From assembly GCA_016209155.1 (NCBI GenBank), contig JACQWU010000157.1, positions 1 through 13,075 of the forward strand: a DNA stretch of 13,075 nt, given 5' to 3'. Each line of letters opens with the position of its first letter. The first letter of the stretch is position 1. The notes below the pieces were generated by a model, which had not been told where the DNA came from, searched no databases, and saw nothing but the letters and a program-made list of their open reading frames with translations. The translations under genes and the position numbers were made by a program. Source of the stretch: Candidatus Desantisiibacteriota bacterium (lineage in GTDB: Bacteria; JACRDZ01). Of this stretch, positions 112-8,443 are shown one piece after another.

Positions 112-219
112 ATGACTCGTAATGAAGTAATAGAACACTTAAAAAAATTCAAAGAAGAAAACAAAGATAAATATCACCATTCCAAAATATTTAAGGATAA
201 CTTATGGACTGGGCAATAA
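112..219 (+). CDS. 35-aa ORF coupled to the large target gene; possible nucleotidyltransferase N-terminus remnant or leader peptide
   Basis: The ATG at 112 follows a strong purine-rich Shine-Dalgarno (AGGAGAAGGAGGT, 88-100). The frame runs 35 codons to TAA at 217-219 and overlaps the ATG of the large gene (204) by 16 bases, so the two are probably translationally coupled. The first ~20 residues (MTRNEVIEHLKKFKEENKDK) resemble the N-terminal helix of small MNT-type nucleotidyltransferases, which usually continue KYG.xx.GLFGS. Here that continuation is lost (KYHHSKIF), so this could be a truncated antitoxin-like gene whose start was captured in front of the target gene. It could equally be a short leader peptide. 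The resemblance is recalled, not searched; the ORF and its ribosome binding site are seen directly. Confidence 0.4.
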   Translation: MTRNEVIEHLKKFKEENKDKYHHSKIFKDNLWTGQ

Positions 220-3200
220 TAAATAAAATTCAAATTAAATTACAAGAACATAAAGATTCTCGTGTAAAAGAACTTCCACAGGGGGATATTAATGTTTTAG
301 TTATGAGCAACCTTTTAGCCCCGCATATTAATGCCAGTGAATTTGATATTCGGTTCATTGCTTCGGGTGCTTCCGGTGCCGGAGTTCTTTTAATAGTCAC
401 CGATGAAAAAGTTCCAATTATTATCAAATATGGGAAAAAAGAAATTGTTGATAGGGAAAAAGAAAATTATACTCTGAAAGTAAAAGAGTTTATTCAATCT
501 GAAATTATCCCAACCTTGAAAGATAGCTACATGACACTTGGTGAATATGCATCCATAGCATATATCTGGGGCGGCGGGTGGAATGAAGCCGGGAAATTTC
601 GTGATTACTTTAAGCATGAGGAATCCAGCAAAAAAATAAATGAACAAATCAGTTCTTTAATGGACGGGCTTTTTAAATGGTACAGACTTAAAAGAGGAAC
701 AATGATTCCTATTGACCAGTGGCAATGGAATCCCTCCAATGCTCTTGTCTCTGTTGAAAACAAAATCAAAGCCTGGGACAGCAATGATGGTGCTAAGAAA
801 AATTTAATTGCAGCAATTAGAAATCAGGAAAAATGGAGAAACGCAATAAGGATTGCAAACTTCAGCCAGGGTTTTTGTCATGGTGATTTGAACTGTAATA
901 ATATTATAATTTCTCAGAATAGTATTCCATTTCCAAAAATAATTGATTTTGCAAGTGTACGTGAAGGAATTACCCCTGCCAAGGACTGGGCAAAGTTTGA
1001 AAGGGAAATTAAATTCAGGTTTCTGCGGGATATCACATTGGATTCAACTGCATTTAGAAAAATGGTTAAACGAGTTGACGAAGTCTGTAATTCATTGAAT
1101 ACAACTGATGTTGATAACTCTATAAAAAAGCCATGCTATTTAATAACTTTTATAAGAAAAAAGTATTCGGAAAAAGTCAGTTCATTTTCTGATGCCCCAT
1201 ATCTTGAATATCTCTTTTATCTTTTCTATATAACACTATCATATATTATCCACCCGGAAATAAAAGATGATCTGGAAATACAAAACACAGTAATTGATTC
1301 TGCATACAGGACATTAGAAGAGATTGAAAAGTTATTCCCATACAAATATAAAAATTATACTTATCCCGGAATTTTGATTACAGAAGAAGAACCTTCTCCT
1401 AAAACTTATAAAAAAGATATTATTGATTTGCCAATAAAATTAGAAATTCCTGATAGTTATCAAAAATGGGTGGTTGATCGTTGTGAGGAAATCAATATAG
1501 AAAAATTAGTGGAAAGCAAAGACAGCGAAATTCTTTTAAGTGTAAAAATGCCGCAGATTTTTGTTCCTTTATATACCAATTCACTGGAAAACAAAACCAA
1601 TGAAGAAAAAGAGATCGAGCGTCATGAAATAGAAAAAAAACAGGAGTTGGTTAATATTGAAAAATTATCGGCGGAGAATGAATATTTAGTTATAAAAGGG
1701 CAGGCGGGTTCAGGTAAGACCACTTTATTAAAACATCTGGCTTATACTATAGCTAAAAAAATAAATCCGGATGGATTAAATGATTACCTGCCAGTACTAA
1801 TATTTTTAAATGATTTAAAGAAGGTTTCCAATTTGTCTGATAATAACATTGCCGGTACACCAAAAGCTGAAGAATTATTAACCGGTTACTTTGAAAAAAA
1901 CTGTCCCTCTCTGACTCTGGATATAATAAAAAGATTTTGCCGTGAAGGTAAAGCTATTTTTATATTTGACGGGCTGGATGAAATTAATACGGAAATAAGA
2001 AAAATCGTAGTTACTTCTTTTTCTGATTTTAGAACAAATAATAATTATCCAAAAATAGTATTGGCAGGAAGGCCGCACGGTATAGACACAAATGATAATA
2101 ATGTCTTATGTAAATTCCCCAATAAGTGCATTGAGATTAATACTTTAAATAATGAACAGATTAAAGATTTTGTAAAAAAATGGTTTTTATACGATTCTAA
2201 ACTGCAAAAAGAAGGCAAAACACCTGAGGGGATGATGTGTGAAATTACAGCTCATGAACGAGTTAAGGAACTGGTTATCAATCCACTGATGCTGACTGCT
2301 GTTTGTATTTTGTATCATTATGACCGAAAACTTCCGGAGCAGCGTGTTGAGTTGTATGAAAGGTTTATAAGCAATCTGATTTTTAAGAGATTTGATAATC
2401 CGCTAAAAATAGTAGAATTTTTAATGAGACTGGCTTTCAAAGTTCATACTGAAAAAACGAAAGAAGGAAGAGAGAGAGAAAGAAAATTTGATAACGCATT
2501 AGCCATCAAAGTAATGGAAGAAGTTTATCAGAAAGAAAAAGATGAAACCGATGTTGCATACAGGCAGAGGCTTGAGAGGCAATTTAAGAATATTGAACAA
2601 AATTGCGGACTGCTTGAAGTCAGCAATGATAAACAGTACAGGTTCTGGCATTTAAGTTTTCAGGAGTTTTTAAGTGCAAGGGATATTCAATCCCGGAATA
2701 TGAATTATGACAGGGCAATTGAAGAGTACTGGGATGATGACTGGTATGATGAAGTCATTAAGCTGCTTATAGGATATCTGGCTTTTAGCAGTAACAAGAA
2801 ATGGGCAAATACTATTGTTGAAAGCGAATTAAAAAATAAAGAAAATAATGTTTTCCCATTCAGGCGGATGTTGTTAGCCGCAGATGCGCTTAATGATATT
2901 CATAAAGATATGAGAGATAATAAGGTGCTTAAACTTGCTCAGGATTGTTTAAAGGATATTTGGGGAAAAGGGAATGATCCGAAAATATGGGTAAATGCGG
3001 GTGAAACCCTGGGCTGGTTGGGGGATACCAGAAACCTTAAAGAATTTATTCCTATTGAAGGTGGTGAATATAACTTTAAAGATTTGGGTGTTAAAAATAT
3101 AAAACCATTTGAAATAAGCAAATATCCGGTAACCAATCAATGGTTTGAAAAATTTATTAAAGCAAATGGATATGAAAATATGAATTATTGGAGTGAAGAA

Positions 3201-3695
3201 GGTAAAAAGTGGCTGAATCAACTAAAAGCCAAATACCCTCTATATTGGCACGAACGAAAATGGAAATGCCCAAATGCTCCAGTGGTTGGAGTATGCTGGT
3301 ATGAAGCGAATGCTTTCTGCCGATGGTTAAAACAAGGTTATAGATTGCCCACTGAACAAGAATGGCAAGCAACTGCCGCTGGGCTAAAAAACAGAATATA
3401 TCCATGGGGAAATGAGTTGCAAGATAATAGCTGTAATACTTATGAAACTAAAATTGGAAGAATTTCACCTGTGGGAATTTTTGCTAAAGGTTGCACTCCT
3501 CTTGGTGTAGCTGATATGGCTGGTAATGTGTGGGAATGGACTGACAGTTGGTTTGATGAAAGTAAAAATAGCAAGGTGCTTCGCGGGGGTTCATGGAACC
3601 TCAATCAGGAGCTCGCCCGATGCGCTAACCGTTACAGGAGCAATCCGGTGAACCGTGACAACAATCTCGGTTTTCGTTGTGCCAGGACTTTGTAG
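204..3695 (+). CDS. DGR target protein 1: kinase-like + NACHT NTPase + FGE-sulfatase/C-type-lectin-fold variable domain
   Basis: This 1163-residue protein has three recognisable parts. Residues ~50-260 look like an aminoglycoside-phosphotransferase/kinase-like fold: glycine-rich GASGAG (55-60), a candidate ATP-binding lysine K75, HGDLNCNN (226-233, catalytic-loop pattern) and IIDF (246-249, metal-binding Asp D248). Residues ~490-830 are a NACHT-type STAND NTPase: Walker A GQAGSGKTT (499-507), Walker B ending DGLDE (589-593) and the conserved WHLSFQEF (815-822). A short helical linker follows. Residues ~948-1163 are an FGE-sulfatase-like domain with RLPTEQEW (from 1047), GNVWEWTDSW (from 1107), LRGGSW (1126-1131) and C-terminal GFRCARTL. 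The last ~38 codons are VR1. The start is supported by AAGGA at 193-197, six bases before the ATG. By analogy to STAND proteins, ligand binding by the variable domain would drive NTP-dependent switching and an output by the kinase-like part; this is inference. The protein is intracellular, with no signal peptide or clear membrane segment. Confidence 0.88.
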   Translation: MDWAIINKIQIKLQEHKDSRVKELPQGDINVLVMSNLLAPHINASEFDIRFIASGASGAGVLLIVTDEKVPIIIKYGKKEIVDREKENYTLKVKEFIQSEIIPTLKDSYMTLGEYASIAYIWGGGWNEAGKFRDYFKHEESSKKINEQISSLMDGLFKWYRLKRGTMIPIDQWQWNPSNALVSVENKIKAWDSNDGAKKNLIAAIRNQEKWRNAIRIANFSQGFCHGDLNCNNIIISQNSIPFPKIIDFASVREGITPAKDWAKFEREIKFRFLRDITLDSTAFRKMVKRVDEVCNSLNTTDVDNSIKKPCYLITFIRKKYSEKVSSFSDAPYLEYLFYLFYITLSYIIHPEIKDDLEIQNTVIDSAYRTLEEIEKLFPYKYKNYTYPGILITEEEPSPKTYKKDIIDLPIKLEIPDSYQKWVVDRCEEINIEKLVESKDSEILLSVKMPQIFVPLYTNSLENKTNEEKEIERHEIEKKQELVNIEKLSAENEYLVIKGQAGSGKTTLLKHLAYTIAKKINPDGLNDYLPVLIFLNDLKKVSNLSDNNIAGTPKAEELLTGYFEKNCPSLTLDIIKRFCREGKAIFIFDGLDEINTEIRKIVVTSFSDFRTNNNYPKIVLAGRPHGIDTNDNNVLCKFPNKCIEINTLNNEQIKDFVKKWFLYDSKLQKEGKTPEGMMCEITAHERVKELVINPLMLTAVCILYHYDRKLPEQRVELYERFISNLIFKRFDNPLKIVEFLMRLAFKVHTEKTKEGRERERKFDNALAIKVMEEVYQKEKDETDVAYRQRLERQFKNIEQNCGLLEVSNDKQYRFWHLSFQEFLSARDIQSRNMNYDRAIEEYWDDDWYDEVIKLLIGYLAFSSNKKWANTIVESELKNKENNVFPFRRMLLAADALNDIHKDMRDNKVLKLAQDCLKDIWGKGNDPKIWVNAGETLGWLGDTRNLKEFIPIEGGEYNFKDLGVKNIKPFEISKYPVTNQWFEKFIKANGYENMNYWSEEGKKWLNQLKAKYPLYWHERKWKCPNAPVVGVCWYEANAFCRWLKQGYRLPTEQEWQATAAGLKNRIYPWGNELQDNSCNTYETKIGRISPVGIFAKGCTPLGVADMAGNVWEWTDSWFDESKNSKVLRGGSWNLNQELARCANRYRSNPVNRDNNLGFRCARTL
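3574..3689 (+). repeat. DGR variable repeat VR1 (3' end of target 1)
   Basis: This 116-base copy of the template repeat (5159-5274) encodes residues ~1125-1162 of target 1. Aligned codon by codon, it differs from TR at nine positions between 3592 and 3670, all adenines in TR: AAC>CTC twice, AAC>TAC, AAC>AGC, GAG>GTG, AAC>GAC and ATC>CTC. The tenth difference, T>G at 3686, lies at the 3' edge, beyond the initiation (IMH-like) stretch TCGGTTTTCGTTGTGCCAG. Cysteine, glycine, arginine and tryptophan codons that form the fold lack changed adenines and are intact. Confidence 0.93.
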
Positions 3696-3749
3696 CTCTT
3701 TGCACTTTTACGCTTTTACCCTTTACCGCCGTTAGGCGGTCGAAATTTT
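3690..3749 (+). promoter_or_regulatory. Post-VR1 target-recognition segment with hairpin (stem 3725-3730/3735-3740)
   Basis: The 60 bases after VR1 match those after VR2 (7296-7355) at 55 positions. Inside is a hairpin with arms ACCGCC (3725-3730) and GGCGGT (3735-3740) around a four-base GTTA loop. DGR targets studied experimentally need a hairpin/cruciform just downstream of the VR for efficient retrohoming, and this fits that role. It is followed by a T-run (AAATTTT), so it may also work as a weak transcription terminator. Confidence 0.65.
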
Positions 3750-3766
3750 AAAAATTAGGAGATACA

Positions 3767-4114
3767 TTGCCTAAAGAAGTTGATGCTATTACAAAACTTT
3801 ATGATTTTATTCTTTGGATAATCCCGAAGCTGGAAAAATTTCCACGCAGTCAGAAATTTTTACTGGCGGACAGAATTGAAAATTTTTTACTCGATATTCT
3901 TGAACTTTTGATTGAAGCGTCTTATTCCAAAAATAAATCCAATCAACTCAAAAATGCAAATTTGAAACTTGAACAACTGCGTTATTTAATAAGATTATCC
4001 AAGGACCTTAAATTACTTGATTTAAAAAGTTATGAATTTTCTGCTCAGACAATTAATAATATTGGCATTTCTATTGGAGGTTGGTTAAAATATACAAATC
4101 ATGAAAACATATAA
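3767..4114 (+). CDS. avd: DGR accessory variability determinant (Avd-like four-helix-bundle protein)
   Basis: This 115-residue, lysine/leucine-rich, predicted all-helical protein matches the Avd/four-helix-bundle family as I know it: KFPRSQKF near residue 25, then DRI, LLDILELLIEA, LKLEQLRYLIRL.KDLKLL and a C-terminal IGGWLK. Avd proteins form pentameric barrels that bind the DGR reverse transcriptase and TR RNA and are needed for cDNA synthesis. The start is TTG at 3767, supported by AGGAG (3757-3761) five bases upstream; no ATG competes with it. The gene lies 71 bases after target 1 and overlaps the RT start by 14 bases, so the two are translationally coupled. Its length is close to the family norm (~110-130 residues). 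Confidence 0.9.
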   Translation: MPKEVDAITKLYDFILWIIPKLEKFPRSQKFLLADRIENFLLDILELLIEASYSKNKSNQLKNANLKLEQLRYLIRLSKDLKLLDLKSYEFSAQTINNIGISIGGWLKYTNHENI

Positions 4115-5213
4115 CAATCTATTTGATAAAATAATTTCATTTTCTAACCTTCTTCTCGCTTCCCAAAAAACGCAAAAAGGCAAGCGTTTTAAAGATGGAA
4201 TTGCTTTGTTTAATTTGAATCTGGAAAAGGAATTGATTAAACTGCAAAAAGAATTACAGGAAATGACTTATCATCATGGTGAATACCGTGATTTTTTTGT
4301 TTACGATCCAAAAAGACGGTTAATCAGCGCTGCTCCATACCGGGATCGAGTGGTTCATCATGCTCTTTGTAATATTATTGAACCAATTTTTAATAAAGCA
4401 TTTATTTATGATTCATATGCTAACCGGAAGGAAAAAGGTACTCATGCCGCAATTAATAGATATACTGAATTTGCCGGAAAAAATAAATATGTTTTGCAAT
4501 GTGATATACAAAAATATTTTCAAAGCGTTAACCATGAAATACTTCTGGAGATTATTTCAAAAAAGATTACATGCGTAAAAACACTCTGGCTTATTAGAGA
4601 AATCATCAATACACGATGCGATGAAAATTATTTCTTTTACTTTGAAAATGACGACCTTTTCAGCCCGTTTGAAAAAAAGAAAGGAATTCCTATAGGTAAT
4701 TTAACAAGCCAATTTTTTGCCAATGTTTATCTAAATGGTTTTGATCATTTCATAAAAGAAACGATTAAATGTCCATACATTCGCTATGTCGATGATTTTG
4801 TTGTATTCGGCAATGATAAAGAACAATTGCATGAAGTAAAAAATCAAATGGATATTTATCTTGCTTCATTACGTTTAAAACTTCACGAGAGAAAATGCAG
4901 AATATATCAAATCAAAGATGGACTTAACTTTCTTGGTTATAGAATATTTCCTGAGTATCGATTACTTAAGAAAGATAATATATTACGAATGAAAAGAAAG
5001 CTTAAAAAATTAAGCCATCAATATAAACATGGCTCAATTTCTCTTGATAAAATTCATCAAAGTATTCAAAGTTGGATAGGCCATGCTTCCCATGCCGATA
5101 CTTACAATTTAAGATCAAAGCTATTGGGAAGTGTAGCTTTTCAAAGGGGTGCGACCAGAGGTGCTTCGCGGGGGTTCATGGAACAACAATCAGGAGAACG
5201 CCCGATGCGCTAA
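4101..5213 (+). CDS. DGR-type reverse transcriptase
   Basis: This 370-residue retroelement RT shows catalytic Asp 135 in LQCDIQKYF, the motif [14 protein letters not shown] (195 onward) and the catalytic YVDD box (Y229-D232). The I/LGxxxSQ form of motif 4 (here IGNLTSQ, 198-204) is characteristic of DGR RTs, whereas most retroviral and group II RTs carry a QG form. These enzymes copy TR RNA with high misincorporation opposite adenine. ATG 4101 sits inside the end of avd. There is no maturase or endonuclease domain, which fits a DGR and not a group II intron. The last 18 codons (353-370) lie inside the template repeat, and the stop TAA (5211-5213) uses two adenines of a TR AAC codon, so the conserved enzyme probably ends near residue 350 and the tail is TR-derived. 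Confidence 0.93.
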
Positions 5214-5274
5214 CCGTAACAGGAACAATCCGGAGAACCGTAACAACAATATCGGTTTTCGTTGTGCCAGTACT
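5159..5274 (+). repeat. DGR template repeat (TR)
   Basis: This 116-base repeat has the same orientation as the RT and both targets. Read in the VR frame it is dense in AAC/AAT codons: from 5182 to 5253 it holds 30 adenines, 19 of which are changed in at least one VR. Both VRs differ from this copy only at its adenines, which marks it as the template. The 3' part TCGGTTTTCGTTGTGCCAG (5252-5270) is unchanged in all three copies and is the likely IMH/IMH* region. At 5271 TR has T where both VRs have G, which marks the end of transferred sequence. Confidence 0.94.
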
Positions 5275-5436
5275 AAAAAAGTTTGTTTTTGCCGGAGCCT
5301 TATCTTTTAAGAAAAGATAGGGGTGTGCATTTACTTAAGTCCAGGTCGCAATCCTGTGTTGGCTTATTTTAGCCAACCAAAATAAAAATAGCTCTATCCG
5401 GGGTTAGTAGGGAGACTGAAAACTCCGGGAGAGTAT
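5275..5436 (+). ncRNA. Structured non-coding stretch after TR, likely 3' part of the DGR template RNA
   Basis: No credible gene lies between TR and the second target. Three stem-loops can be drawn: CCTTATCTTTT (5298-5308) with AAAAGATAGGG (5312-5322), 11 bp including one G-T pair; GTTGGCT (5358-5364) with AGCCAAC (5371-5377); and CCGGGGTT (5398-5405) with AACTCCGG (5421-5428), one G-T pair. In the studied Bordetella phage DGR, a structured spacer 3' of TR binds RT-Avd and primes cDNA synthesis. This stretch sits where that element would be. It is drawn by eye and no folding energy was computed. Confidence 0.4.
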
Positions 5437-5448
5437 AAAGGAGAAAAA

Positions 5449-7301
5449 TTGGGAAAATTTAAAATTAAAATTTTAAGTGATAATCCGGAAGAAATAAAAG
5501 AAAACATTAAGTTTGATTTTCATGCTTATAAAAAAACATTTGTTGATATCATATCCTCAAATGATAATGAAACTCCGCTTGTAATAGGGCTTGAAGGCAG
5601 ATGGGGGAGAGGTAAAACCACATAGATATAAAAAAATTATGGGATAAACTTAATCTTAAGGCAATACCTGAATTTTTAGTAGACTATATTCCTTTTTTAA
5701 AAGGTTTTTCAAATATAATAAAAGAAGAAGATTATAAAAAAAACCTGCCGTATTTTAACCTTTTCAGCACATTTTTAAAACAATTAATCAGGCTTTGGAT
5801 TCATTGTGAAGATTCATTTAAAATAACTGATGGAGAAAGCATTGGGGTTGGAGAAATAGATGATAAAAAAGGTGTTGTGGTAATTTTTATTGACGACCTT
5901 GACAGGTGTAATAAAGAAAATATTGTAAAAGTTCTAGAAGCTGTGAAACTTTTTCTTGATTTTAGAGGATGTATTTTCGTAATGGGGGTTTCTATAGAAA
6001 TTATAGTAAAGGCTACTTCTTCTGTGGCTCATTGTGAAGATGGAAGTGAATACCTTGAAAAGATGATTCAGGTATCATACGGACTTCCACCAATTCACCA
6101 GGATGATATGAAAATTTATTTCGAAGAAAAAATTTCCCTATTTTCCTATAATGATATCTTAAATAAATACTCAGACGTAATTATAAAATCATTTGGAGAT
6201 AGGATTACTCCAAGAAAAATTAAGCAGTTCATTAATAATCTAAACCTGCAAATTAAGATATCAGATAATAAGGGTTTATTTGAAAAAGATTTTTATGATG
6301 AAAATAATAATAAAATAATTTTAAAAATTGATCATTATATATACTGGAATATTCTGAAAGAAGCATTTAGAATAAATTTTGATAGTATTAAAGATAATAC
6401 AGATATTATAAAAATGACACAAACCGCATATAAAGAAAATGAAGCTCAAATAAAAAATAGTAATTTTGAAAATATTGATAAAATCCGATACGAAGTTGTT
6501 AAGGATATACTAAAAAATCAAATGTTACGGGAGATAGTTATAAATTTACCTGATAATGCTGAGATTATAAATATATTAAAATTTGAATCTTTAGCAGTTG
6601 GTCAAATACATATAGAAACAGAAGATATGAAGGGAATGCGTGAGCATTATCGTAGTGGGGCAATGGTAAAAATTGAAAAAGGTCCGTTTTTATATACAGA
6701 GGAAAAAATTAAAGAAAAAATAGATTACGATTATGAAATAGATATATTCCCTGTTACAATTGAAGAATATTGCAAATTTATAGATATTAAGAAGCCGGAT
6801 AAAAAGGAATTAGATAATTGGATTTCTTTAGAAGGTAGGATTAAAGAGAAAGATGGAAAATATATTGTGGAAAAATGTTACGAGAAACATCCTATTATTT
6901 ATGTATCATGGTATGGTGCTAAGGAATATGCAAAATGGATGAAAAAAAGACTGCCCGAAGAAAAAGAATGGGAGAAAGCGGCAAGGGGACCAAATGGTTG
7001 GATATATCCATGGGGTGATGAGTTTGATAAAGGAAAATGCAATACCTCTGAATCCAATAATAATGATACAACTGAGGTAGACAAATATCCGAATGGAAAA
7101 AGTTATTATGGATGCTATGATATGGCAGGTAATGTCTGGGAGTGGACGGACAGTTGGTATGATAAAAATATGGATAGCAAGGTGCTTCGCGGGGGTTCAT
7201 GGTACTACGATCAGGAGTACGCCCGATGCGCTGACCGTGACAGGTACCTTCCGGAGTACCGTAACCTCGATATCGGTTTTCGTTGTGCCAGGACTTTGTA
7301 G
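5449..7301 (+). pseudogene. DGR target 2: KAP-type P-loop NTPase + FGE-like variable domain, disrupted between Walker A and B
   Basis: The N-terminal piece starts at TTG 5449, five bases after AAAGGAG (5437-5443). It encodes 58 residues typical of KAP NTPases: FHAYKKTF.DII, then Walker A GRWGRGKTT (50-58). It then hits TAG at 5623-5625. The next frame is open from 5616 to 7301 and carries FIDDLDRC (Walker B, ~5886-5909), VKLFLDFRGCIFVMGV, YLEKMIQ and ITPRKIKQFINNL, all KAP-like. From ~6657 follows an FGE-like domain (RLPEEKEW, GNVWEWTDSW, LRGGSW, GFRCARTL) ending in VR2. Walker A and B are only ~90 codons apart, and the WFNAW(R/K)Y segment expected after Walker A is missing, so an internal deletion with frameshift is likelier than a one-base error. 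A separate product could begin only at GTG 5877, without Walker A. An assembly error is possible. Confidence 0.8.
7180..7295 (+). repeat. DGR variable repeat VR2 (3' end of target 2)
   Basis: This 116-base copy of TR lies in the same frame relative to the FGE-like domain as VR1. It differs from TR at 13 positions between 7203 and 7271, all adenines in TR: five AAC>TAC, two AAC>GAC, two AAT>GAT, AAT>CTT and AAC>CTC. It also shares with VR1 the G (7292) that replaces the TR T at 5271. No stop codon is created and all non-adenine positions are intact, although the gene is broken upstream. Confidence 0.94.
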
Positions 7302-7355
7302 CTCTTTGCACTTTTATTCTTTTACCCTTTACCGCCGTAAGGCGGTAAAAATTTT
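7296..7355 (+). promoter_or_regulatory. Post-VR2 target-recognition segment with hairpin (stem 7328-7336/7341-7349)
   Basis: This is the second copy of the 60-base segment found after VR1, with five differences. The hairpin is longer here: TTTACCGCC (7328-7336) pairs perfectly with GGCGGTAAA (7341-7349) around GTAA. The loop has four bases in both copies but differs at one base (GTTA versus GTAA). This conservation outside any reading frame supports a role in DGR target recognition. A terminator role at the end of the locus is also possible. Confidence 0.65.
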
Positions 7356-7419: not shown

Positions 7420-7448
7420 TTGCCAATGAAGCGATAATAATATATAAT
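7420..7448 (+). promoter_or_regulatory. Sigma-70-type promoter of the Fic gene
   Basis: TTGCCA (7420-7425) and a perfect TATAAT (7443-7448) are separated by 17 bases. The predicted start of transcription is near 7455, leaving a short leader before ATG 7490. The direct repeat TGAAGCGAT occurs at 7427-7435 (inside the spacer) and 7461-7469 (just after the start site), 34 bases apart, and could be a regulator site. Confidence 0.6.
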
Positions 7449-7489
7449 TGCATCAATATTTGAAGCGATTAAATAGGGTGAAAAATATT

Positions 7490-8443
7490 ATGACAAAATA
7501 TATATGGCAGAAAAAGGATTGGTATGATTTTAATTATGATCATAAAGCATTGATTGAATTACTTGCAAAAGCACGTCTTATGCAGGGAAATATGCTCGGG
7601 AAAATGTCATTGCTTGATATAAACCAGGAGATAGAAGCTCAGGCTGAAGTTCTTATTGAGGAAGCAGTAAGAACAGCAGAGATAGAAGGTATGTCATTAA
7701 ACAGAGATGCAGTAAGATCATCGGTAGCTATGCGTTTAGGGCTTCCGCATGGGGTAAACATAAAAGATAGAAATGCGGATGGACTTGTTGAGGTTTTGCT
7801 TGATGCAATACATTTTAATGAAAAACCACTTACGCAGGAAAGATTAAACGCCTGGCAGGCAGCGCTTTTCCCGACAGGATATTCAGGTCTAAAGAAAATA
7901 CGTACCGGAGAATTGCGGGGTCATGATCCAATGCGTGTAATATCAGGACCTATAGGTAAAGAAAAAATGCATTTTGAAGCACCGCCTGCGCAGCAGATTA
8001 AAAAAGAATTAAGCCATTTTATAAATTGGTGGAATGATTCATCGGATAAAATGGACGGTATGTTACGGGCTGCTGCCGCGCATCTGCGATTTATAACAAT
8101 ACACCCTTATGAGGATGGAAATGGAAGAATAGCGCGCGCACTGACAGATATGGCTCTTTCACAGGATTAAAAAATAAAAGTAAGATTTTATAGTGTTTCT
8201 TCACAAATCATGAAAAATCGGGAGGATTATTACAATATTCTTGAAAATATCCAGAACTGTCGTCTTGATGTCACTGAATGGTTTGTATGGTTTATAAAAT
8301 GTGTTATATCCGCGATAGAACATTCGCAAAATATTATTGCAAATGTGTTCAAAAAAGCTGAATTCTGGAAAAAACATGCACAAACACAATTAAATGAAAG
8401 ACAGAGAAAAGTGATAGCTAAACTTCTTGAAGCAGGTCCCTAA
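7490..8443 (+). pseudogene. Fic-family protein (DUF4172-Fic type), interrupted by an in-frame stop and truncated
   Basis: The preferred start is ATG 7490 (MTKYIWQKKDW, the typical beginning of DUF4172), not TTG 7448, which overlaps the -10 box. The inhibitory-helix motif TAEIEG (62-67, (S/T)xxxE(G/N)) and the catalytic loop HPYEDGNGRIAR (205-216) are complete, so the ancestor was an AMP-transferase-type Fic enzyme with built-in autoinhibition. TAA at 8168-8170 stops it after codon 226. The same frame then reads KIKVRFYSVSSQI and onward to LNERQRKV..LLEAGP before TAA at 8441. Relatives as I recall them have D-E-K at the stop, so a single GAA>TAA change explains it. Full-length relatives run to ~370 residues with a C-terminal winged helix, which is missing here. 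A 226-residue truncated product could still be made. Confidence 0.8.

What the first reader, a model, noticed from the sequence alone, without database searches (positions are those of the whole stretch)
5596..5910. Second DGR target is broken between Walker A and Walker B yet has the more diversified VR
The KAP frame stops right after GRWGRGKTT, and the downstream frame resumes with Walker B only ~90 codons later, lacking the WFNAW(R/K)Y block. VR2 nevertheless carries 13 adenine changes with no stop and a perfect 9-bp recognition hairpin. Either the break is recent, or the DGR still homes into a dead target that keeps a store of VR sequence, or the fragment from GTG 5877 is still made.
Basis: partly seen in the sequence, partly recalled or inferred. 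Interest (0 to 1): 0.7.

Follow-up and report, generated by a model that had tools for sequence, protein, structure and literature searches.

The report
Recently broken second DGR target gene
A bacterial system that hypermutates the tips of two sensor-like proteins has lost about 65 amino acids from the ATPase engine of one of them, most likely a recent and ordinary gene death, while the DNA tip that the system rewrites is still intact and still looks targetable.

Summary
The break is in the sequence. The KAP frame starts at TTG 5449, runs through Walker A (GRWGRGKTT) and stops at TAG 5623-5625. Another frame (5628-7301) carries Walker B, the rest of KAP and the FGE/VR2 domain. Intact KAP-FGE relatives, two in the same kind of DGR locus (a Nitrospirae MAG in the same gene order; Dethiosulfatarculus), show that 62-70 codons are missing, including the invariant WF..W block. 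The block is not elsewhere in the assembled genome.

The 9-bp hairpin is real.

Best reading: a recent loss-of-function deletion in an otherwise complete, known-type NACHT/KAP DGR. Homing does not need an intact target frame (BPP-1 precedent), so VR2 may still be rewritten, but its changes cannot be dated against the break. The adjacent Fic gene is also broken, and two other DGR loci show broken targets with diversified VRs. Assembly error cannot be excluded without reads.

Side finding: a periodic CTTT-rich tail follows most DGR target stop codons in this lineage.

The parts
204..3695 (+). DGR target 1: TCAD9 + NACHT + FGE-sulfatase (CLec-type) protein, 1163 aa, intact
3576..3685 (+). VR1: 9 of 32 core adenines changed relative to TR, no other mismatch
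3696..3740 (+). 3' tail of target 1: four CTTT units spaced 7-8 bp, then hairpin ACCGCC-GTTA-GGCGGT (3725-3740)
3767..4114 (+). bAvd accessory protein, 115 aa, intact
   Evidence: PF22296, E 1.1e-20
4101..5213 (+). DGR reverse transcriptase, 370 aa, YVDD present; frame runs into TR
   Evidence: 69% identical to the RT of L025
5161..5270 (+). Template repeat (TR), 110-bp core shared with both VRs
5449..5625 (+). 5' remnant of target 2: TTG start with SD-like AAAGGAG, 58 codons through Walker A GRWGRGKTT, then TAG
   Evidence: (KAP_NTPase positions 2-35)
5611..5640 (+). Deletion junction: 62-70 codons (about 187-211 bp, length 1 mod 3) missing relative to intact relatives, including the WF..W block; the exact breakpoint inside this interval is not resolvable
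5628..7301 (+). 3' remnant of target 2: open frame with KAP Walker B and C-terminal part, then FGE/CLec domain; no ATG/GTG/TTG before GTG 5877
   Evidence: (KAP positions 145-287; FGE E 2.3e-47)
5877..7301 (+). Largest conventional ORF in the 3' remnant (474 aa from GTG), what a gene caller would report; lacks the P-loop
7182..7291 (+). VR2: 13 of 32 core adenines changed relative to TR, no other mismatch
7302..7349 (+). 3' tail of target 2: four CTTT units spaced 7-8 bp, then perfect 9-bp hairpin TTTACCGCC-GTAA-GGCGGTAAA (7328-7349)

Best explanation
Target 2 is a KAP NTPase-FGE (CLec) gene of a two-target DGR, recently inactivated by an internal deletion of about 187-211 bp. The deletion removed the segment between Walker A and the sequence before Walker B and shifted the frame. 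The rest of the DGR (RT, Avd, TR, target 1) is intact. VR2 keeps TR homology, the VR-side end (CCAGGACT), the CTTT tail and the hairpin, so it should still be a legal landing site, because DGR homing reads DNA and not the target protein. Shown here: the break, its size, intact relatives in the same kind of locus, intact homing elements. Inferred: that the deletion is in the living genome, that it abolishes NTPase function, that it is recent, and that homing can continue.
For: Intact 703-aa KAP-FGE in the same gene order (NACHT-FGE/Avd/RT/TR/KAP-FGE) in L025, and intact 689-aa KAP-FGE in L026 next to Avd, RT and NACHT-FGE. Spacing gap of 62-70 codons against four relatives. WF..W block in 6 of 6 relatives, not in the window. 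The missing block was not found elsewhere in the assembled genome. The downstream remnant keeps 68 of 77 positions invariant in relatives, like intact members (68/74, 68/74, 68/84, 68/81). With no stop in the 518 downstream codons before VR2, neutral drift since the break is below about 0.04 substitutions/site. The adjacent Fic gene is also broken by an in-frame TAA, with an uninterrupted homologue in G008. Broken targets with diversified VRs also occur in L036 (single in-frame TAG, intact RT) and L038. BPP-1 homes into a truncated, nonfunctional reporter given IMH and hairpin (PMC3240598).
Against: No reads were available, so an assembly or strain-mixture artefact is not excluded; the source is a MAG (78.8% complete, 352 contigs). 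The nearest intact homologues are only about 34-39% identical to the remnant, so the exact deletion is not defined. The clean downstream frame also fits continued selection on the fragment.
Confidence: 0.72

Rival explanations
1. Assembly or consensus artefact: the gene is intact in the cell and about 200 bp were dropped by the assembler, or a minority deletion allele was chosen.
For: The genome is a fragmented MAG. The remnants on both sides look fresh. All intact relatives keep the block.
Against: Other protein genes on the contig (target 1, Avd, RT, SPFH protein, threonine synthase) are full-length. No direct repeat of 7 bp or more lies within 5561-5700, although a collapsed repeat would leave one copy and could not be seen. 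The neighbouring Fic gene is independently broken.
Confidence: 0.17
2. The downstream fragment (from GTG 5877 or a non-canonical start) is still made and used as an NTPase-free, DGR-diversified CLec protein.
For: Open frame of 474 codons without decay; family-invariant residues retained; CLec-only DGR targets exist in other lineages (PMC10907252).
Against: No ATG/GTG/TTG for 83 codons, then a GTG inside the KAP core just before Walker B. The SD-like AAAGG is the codons of the conserved DDKKG motif. The product would start in mid-domain without the P-loop. The open frame upstream of GTG 5877 also persists, which selection on this product would not explain.
Confidence: 0.09
3. The dead target is kept as an archive of VR sequence that can recombine into target 1.
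For: VR1 and VR2 share the core plus near-identical 3' flanks (67 of 80 bp) and similar 5' flanks (50 of 60 bp), so exchange is physically possible.
Against: The three adenines changed in both VRs carry different bases, so there is no trace of exchange in this genome.
Confidence: 0.02

Closest known systems
Cellular DGRs of clade 5D with two STAND/KAP-NTPase-CLec targets (Thiohalocapsa PB-PSB1 and relatives; PMC10907252)
   Same: RT plus Avd, two targets each with a central NTPase and a C-terminal FGE-type CLec domain holding one VR; that paper reports NACHT or nSTAND1 targets and mentions KAP in some loci.
   Different: Here one target is interrupted. Clade assignment was not tested by a tree.
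L025, MAG Nitrospirae bacterium Glo_13 (PIVU01000022)
   Same: Same gene order NACHT-FGE/Avd/RT/TR/KAP-FGE; RT 69% identical, Avd 72%.
   Different: KAP-FGE is intact at 703 aa.
L026, Dethiosulfatarculus sandiegensis
   Same: KAP-FGE, Avd, RT and NACHT-FGE in one locus; RT 59% identical.
   Different: KAP-FGE (689 aa, intact) lies upstream and NACHT-FGE downstream of the RT.
L036, Calothrix sp. HK-06 DGR
   Same: Target frame interrupted upstream of a diversified VR while the RT is intact.
   Different: A single in-frame TAG in the FGE domain instead of a deletion in a KAP domain.
Bordetella phage BPP-1 DGR
   Same: TR/VR adenine mutagenesis; hairpin downstream of VR; target need not be a functional gene (PMC3240598).
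   Different: Phage element with one target (mtd) and a different locus layout.

Membership tests
Diversity-generating retroelement | Reverse transcriptase of DGR type with intact catalytic motif | tested here: met
   RVT_1 E 9.5e-29, YVDD in the translation, 69% identical to the RT of another TR/VR-bearing locus
Diversity-generating retroelement | Accessory protein Avd | tested here: met
   bAvd PF22296 E 1.1e-20
Diversity-generating retroelement | TR/VR pairs differing only at TR adenines | tested here: met
   110-bp cores, 9 and 13 adenine-only changes, no other mismatch
Diversity-generating retroelement | Distinct VR-side 3' boundary and downstream hairpin | tested here: met
   CCAGGACT in both VRs against CCAGTACT in TR; hairpins at 3725-3740 and 7328-7349
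Diversity-generating retroelement | Active mutagenic homing | not testable with these tools
   One consensus sequence only; no reads or population data
Functional KAP P-loop NTPase (target 2) | Walker A and Walker B in one continuous reading frame | tested here: not met
   Walker A frame ends at TAG 5623; Walker B is in another frame
Functional KAP P-loop NTPase (target 2) | Segment between Walker A and B with the WF..W(K/R) block | tested here: not met
   Present in 6 of 6 relatives, absent here
DGR clade 5D (PMC10907252) | Position of the RT in the clade 5D branch of the RT tree | not tested
   Only the target architecture was compared

The most novel reading that the evidence does not exclude
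The DGR keeps rewriting VR2 although the target protein can no longer be made, so that the locus is a natural record of homing without selection on the product. VR2 alleles in the population would then show the unselected A-to-N spectrum, next to the selected spectrum in VR1.
Probability: 0.2. Interest if true: 0.6.

Novelty: new member of a known kind. Interest (0 to 1): 0.34.

Why it matters
If the break is real and homing continues, VR2 and VR1 in one cell would separate the mutational spectrum of a DGR from selection on its product, which usually has to be engineered with reporters. The locus also documents turnover of DGR targets: KAP-FGE genes are intact beside the DGR in two relatives, broken here, and broken or split in three of five KAP-FGE genes found without a neighbouring DGR RT (broken: L046, L088; split: L089; intact: L090, L006). 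Otherwise it is an ordinary pseudogene.

Tried and rejected
1) VR2 is unusually diversified: rejected (p = 0.42; relatives 8-21 changes). 2) Absence of stops in VR2 as evidence for selection: rejected, stops are unreachable by adenine mutagenesis. 3) Simple frameshift or split gene: rejected, the WF..W block is absent, not just out of frame. 4) Missing block relocated elsewhere in the genome: not found; only a weak hit, C26 at E 0.09. 5) Allelic copies in IMG/VR: none by exact 26- and 27-mers, and no RT relative. 6) Further DGR targets in the same genome: no other TR/VR match. 7) Plasmid relatives of KAP-FGE: no full-length match. 8) Rfam: nothing at gathering thresholds. 10) VR1/VR2 exchange: no shared substitutions. 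11) Whole-set pyrimidine test mixed TR and non-VR stops into the DGR group; it was replaced by the curated test. 12) A structure prediction was not run: a mid-domain fragment would not decide between the rivals.

Full report
What is there. The window is a whole 13,075-bp contig (C97) of a metagenome-assembled genome, 78.8% complete in 352 contigs. It holds a DGR: target 1 (204-3695, TCAD9-NACHT-FGE), bAvd (3767-4114), RT (4101-5213), TR (5161-5270) and a second target with KAP and FGE domains. Both VRs match TR over 110 bp except at adenines: 9 changes in VR1 (3576-3685) and 13 in VR2 (7182-7291). No other TR/VR copy exists in the assembled genome.

The break. From TTG 5449, behind an AAAGGAG, 58 codons lead through Walker A GRWGRGKTT to TAG 5623-5625. 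A second frame, shifted by one base, is open from 5616/5628 to 7301 and encodes Walker B FIDDLDRC, the rest of KAP and the FGE domain. Pfam KAP_NTPase matches the first piece at positions 2-35 and the second at 145-287. Chance of an 87-codon open stretch before GTG 5877 is about 0.0005 in sequence of this composition, so this frame was coding.

Intact relatives. A scan of genome contigs with the RT gave 20 loci. L025 (Nitrospirae bacterium Glo_13) has the same gene order and an uninterrupted 703-aa KAP-FGE. L026 (Dethiosulfatarculus sandiegensis) has an uninterrupted 689-aa KAP-FGE on the other side of the RT. In L026 and three further KAP proteins (L088, L089, L090), 100-108 residues lie between GKTT and the KLGF-type motif; the window has 38. 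Hence 62-70 codons are missing, with a length of 1 mod 3 from the frame shift, about 187-211 bp. The WF..W block is in all six relatives and not in the window. A search of the own genome with the L026 protein found no relocated copy.

The VR arguments. The difference between VR1 and VR2 is not significant (p = 0.42), and intact targets in related loci carry 8 to 21 changes. Unequal diversification of two targets in one DGR has been reported (PMC10907252). TR codons with adenines are almost all AAC/AAT; enumeration shows that no adenine change can give a stop. So VR2 says nothing about whether the gene was alive when it was rewritten.

Age. In the 518 downstream codons before VR2 there is no stop. 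If the stretch has been neutral since the break, divergence is below about 0.04 substitutions per site at the 5% level (transition weight 2, indels ignored). The remnant retains family-invariant residues as well as intact members do. This fits a recent break or a fragment still under selection; the rest of the anatomy (start codon in mid-domain, SD-like bases explained by the DDKKG codons) favours a recent break. This weighing is inference.

Surroundings and precedents. The next gene, Fic (7448-8443), is interrupted by an in-frame TAA at 8168-8170; reading it through gives a protein 37% identical over residues 9-329 to an uninterrupted frame in G008. The SPFH gene and threonine synthase on the contig are full-length. 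In other genomes KAP-FGE genes are also broken or split: L046 (N-terminal half replaced by other sequence, two frames), L088 (several frames, part missing) and L089 (two overlapping frames); none has a DGR RT within the stretch read. Two other DGR loci show interrupted targets with diversified VRs: L036 (TAG, 14 changes, intact RT) and L038 (target and RT both interrupted, 12 changes). Some of these may be sequencing errors.

Mechanism. In BPP-1 the IMH and hairpin suffice to direct homing into an unrelated, truncated, nonfunctional reporter (PMC3240598). Target translation is therefore not required there. VR2 keeps TR homology, the VR-specific boundary, the tail and the hairpin, so homing into it should remain possible; this is inference and needs population data.

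Side finding. Right after the stop codon of the DGR targets lies a run of CTTT units spaced mostly 7-8 bp: at least three units in 15 of 21 targets against 1 of 143 other ORF ends in the same loci. TRs lack it. The pattern was seen before it was counted, so the test is descriptive, and the targets are related. Between window VR1 and VR2 the 80 bp after the core are identical at 67 positions, although the two proteins are only 43% identical in the FGE region. The same tail follows the DGR-less KAP-FGE genes L046, L088, L089 and L006, suggesting former or remote targets. A full-text search for DGR with 'pyrimidine-rich' found no paper, which is weak evidence of novelty.

Verdict. A real feature of the assembled sequence, most likely an ordinary recent pseudogene in a known kind of system. 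An artefact is the main rival.

Noticed in passing
window 3696-3740 and 7302-7349; L025-L040 after VR stop codons: A periodic CTTT-rich tail (units spaced mostly 7-8 bp), often followed by a CCGCC..GGCGG-type hairpin, sits right after the stop codon of DGR targets across Nitrospirae, Desulfobacterota-like and cyanobacterial loci (15 of 21 with three or more units; 1 of 143 control ORF ends) and is absent after TRs. Candidate target-recognition element or specialised terminator.
   Followed up: partly
L046, L088, L089, L006: KAP-FGE genes without a DGR RT nearby carry the same tail after their stop codon; three of the four are broken or split. They look like orphaned DGR targets.
   Followed up: partly
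window 7448-8443: DUF4172-Fic gene interrupted by one in-frame TAA at 8168-8170.
   Followed up: yes
L036 4390, L038 5600-7010 and 7950-9010: Interrupted DGR targets (and, in L038, an interrupted RT) with diversified VRs.
   Followed up: partly
window 5330-5440; L025 9240-9360: Downstream of TR a motif AGTCCAG...CCTGTG with complementary segments recurs in related DGR loci; possibly the structured 3' part of the TR RNA. No Rfam match.
   Followed up: no
window 4101-5213: The RT frame runs on into TR (also in L026), whereas in L025 it stops just before TR.
   Followed up: no
G000 C230:47-412, C314, C294, C224: Further RT-like fragments in the same genome, one 45% identical to the DGR RT and near a contig edge.
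   Followed up: no
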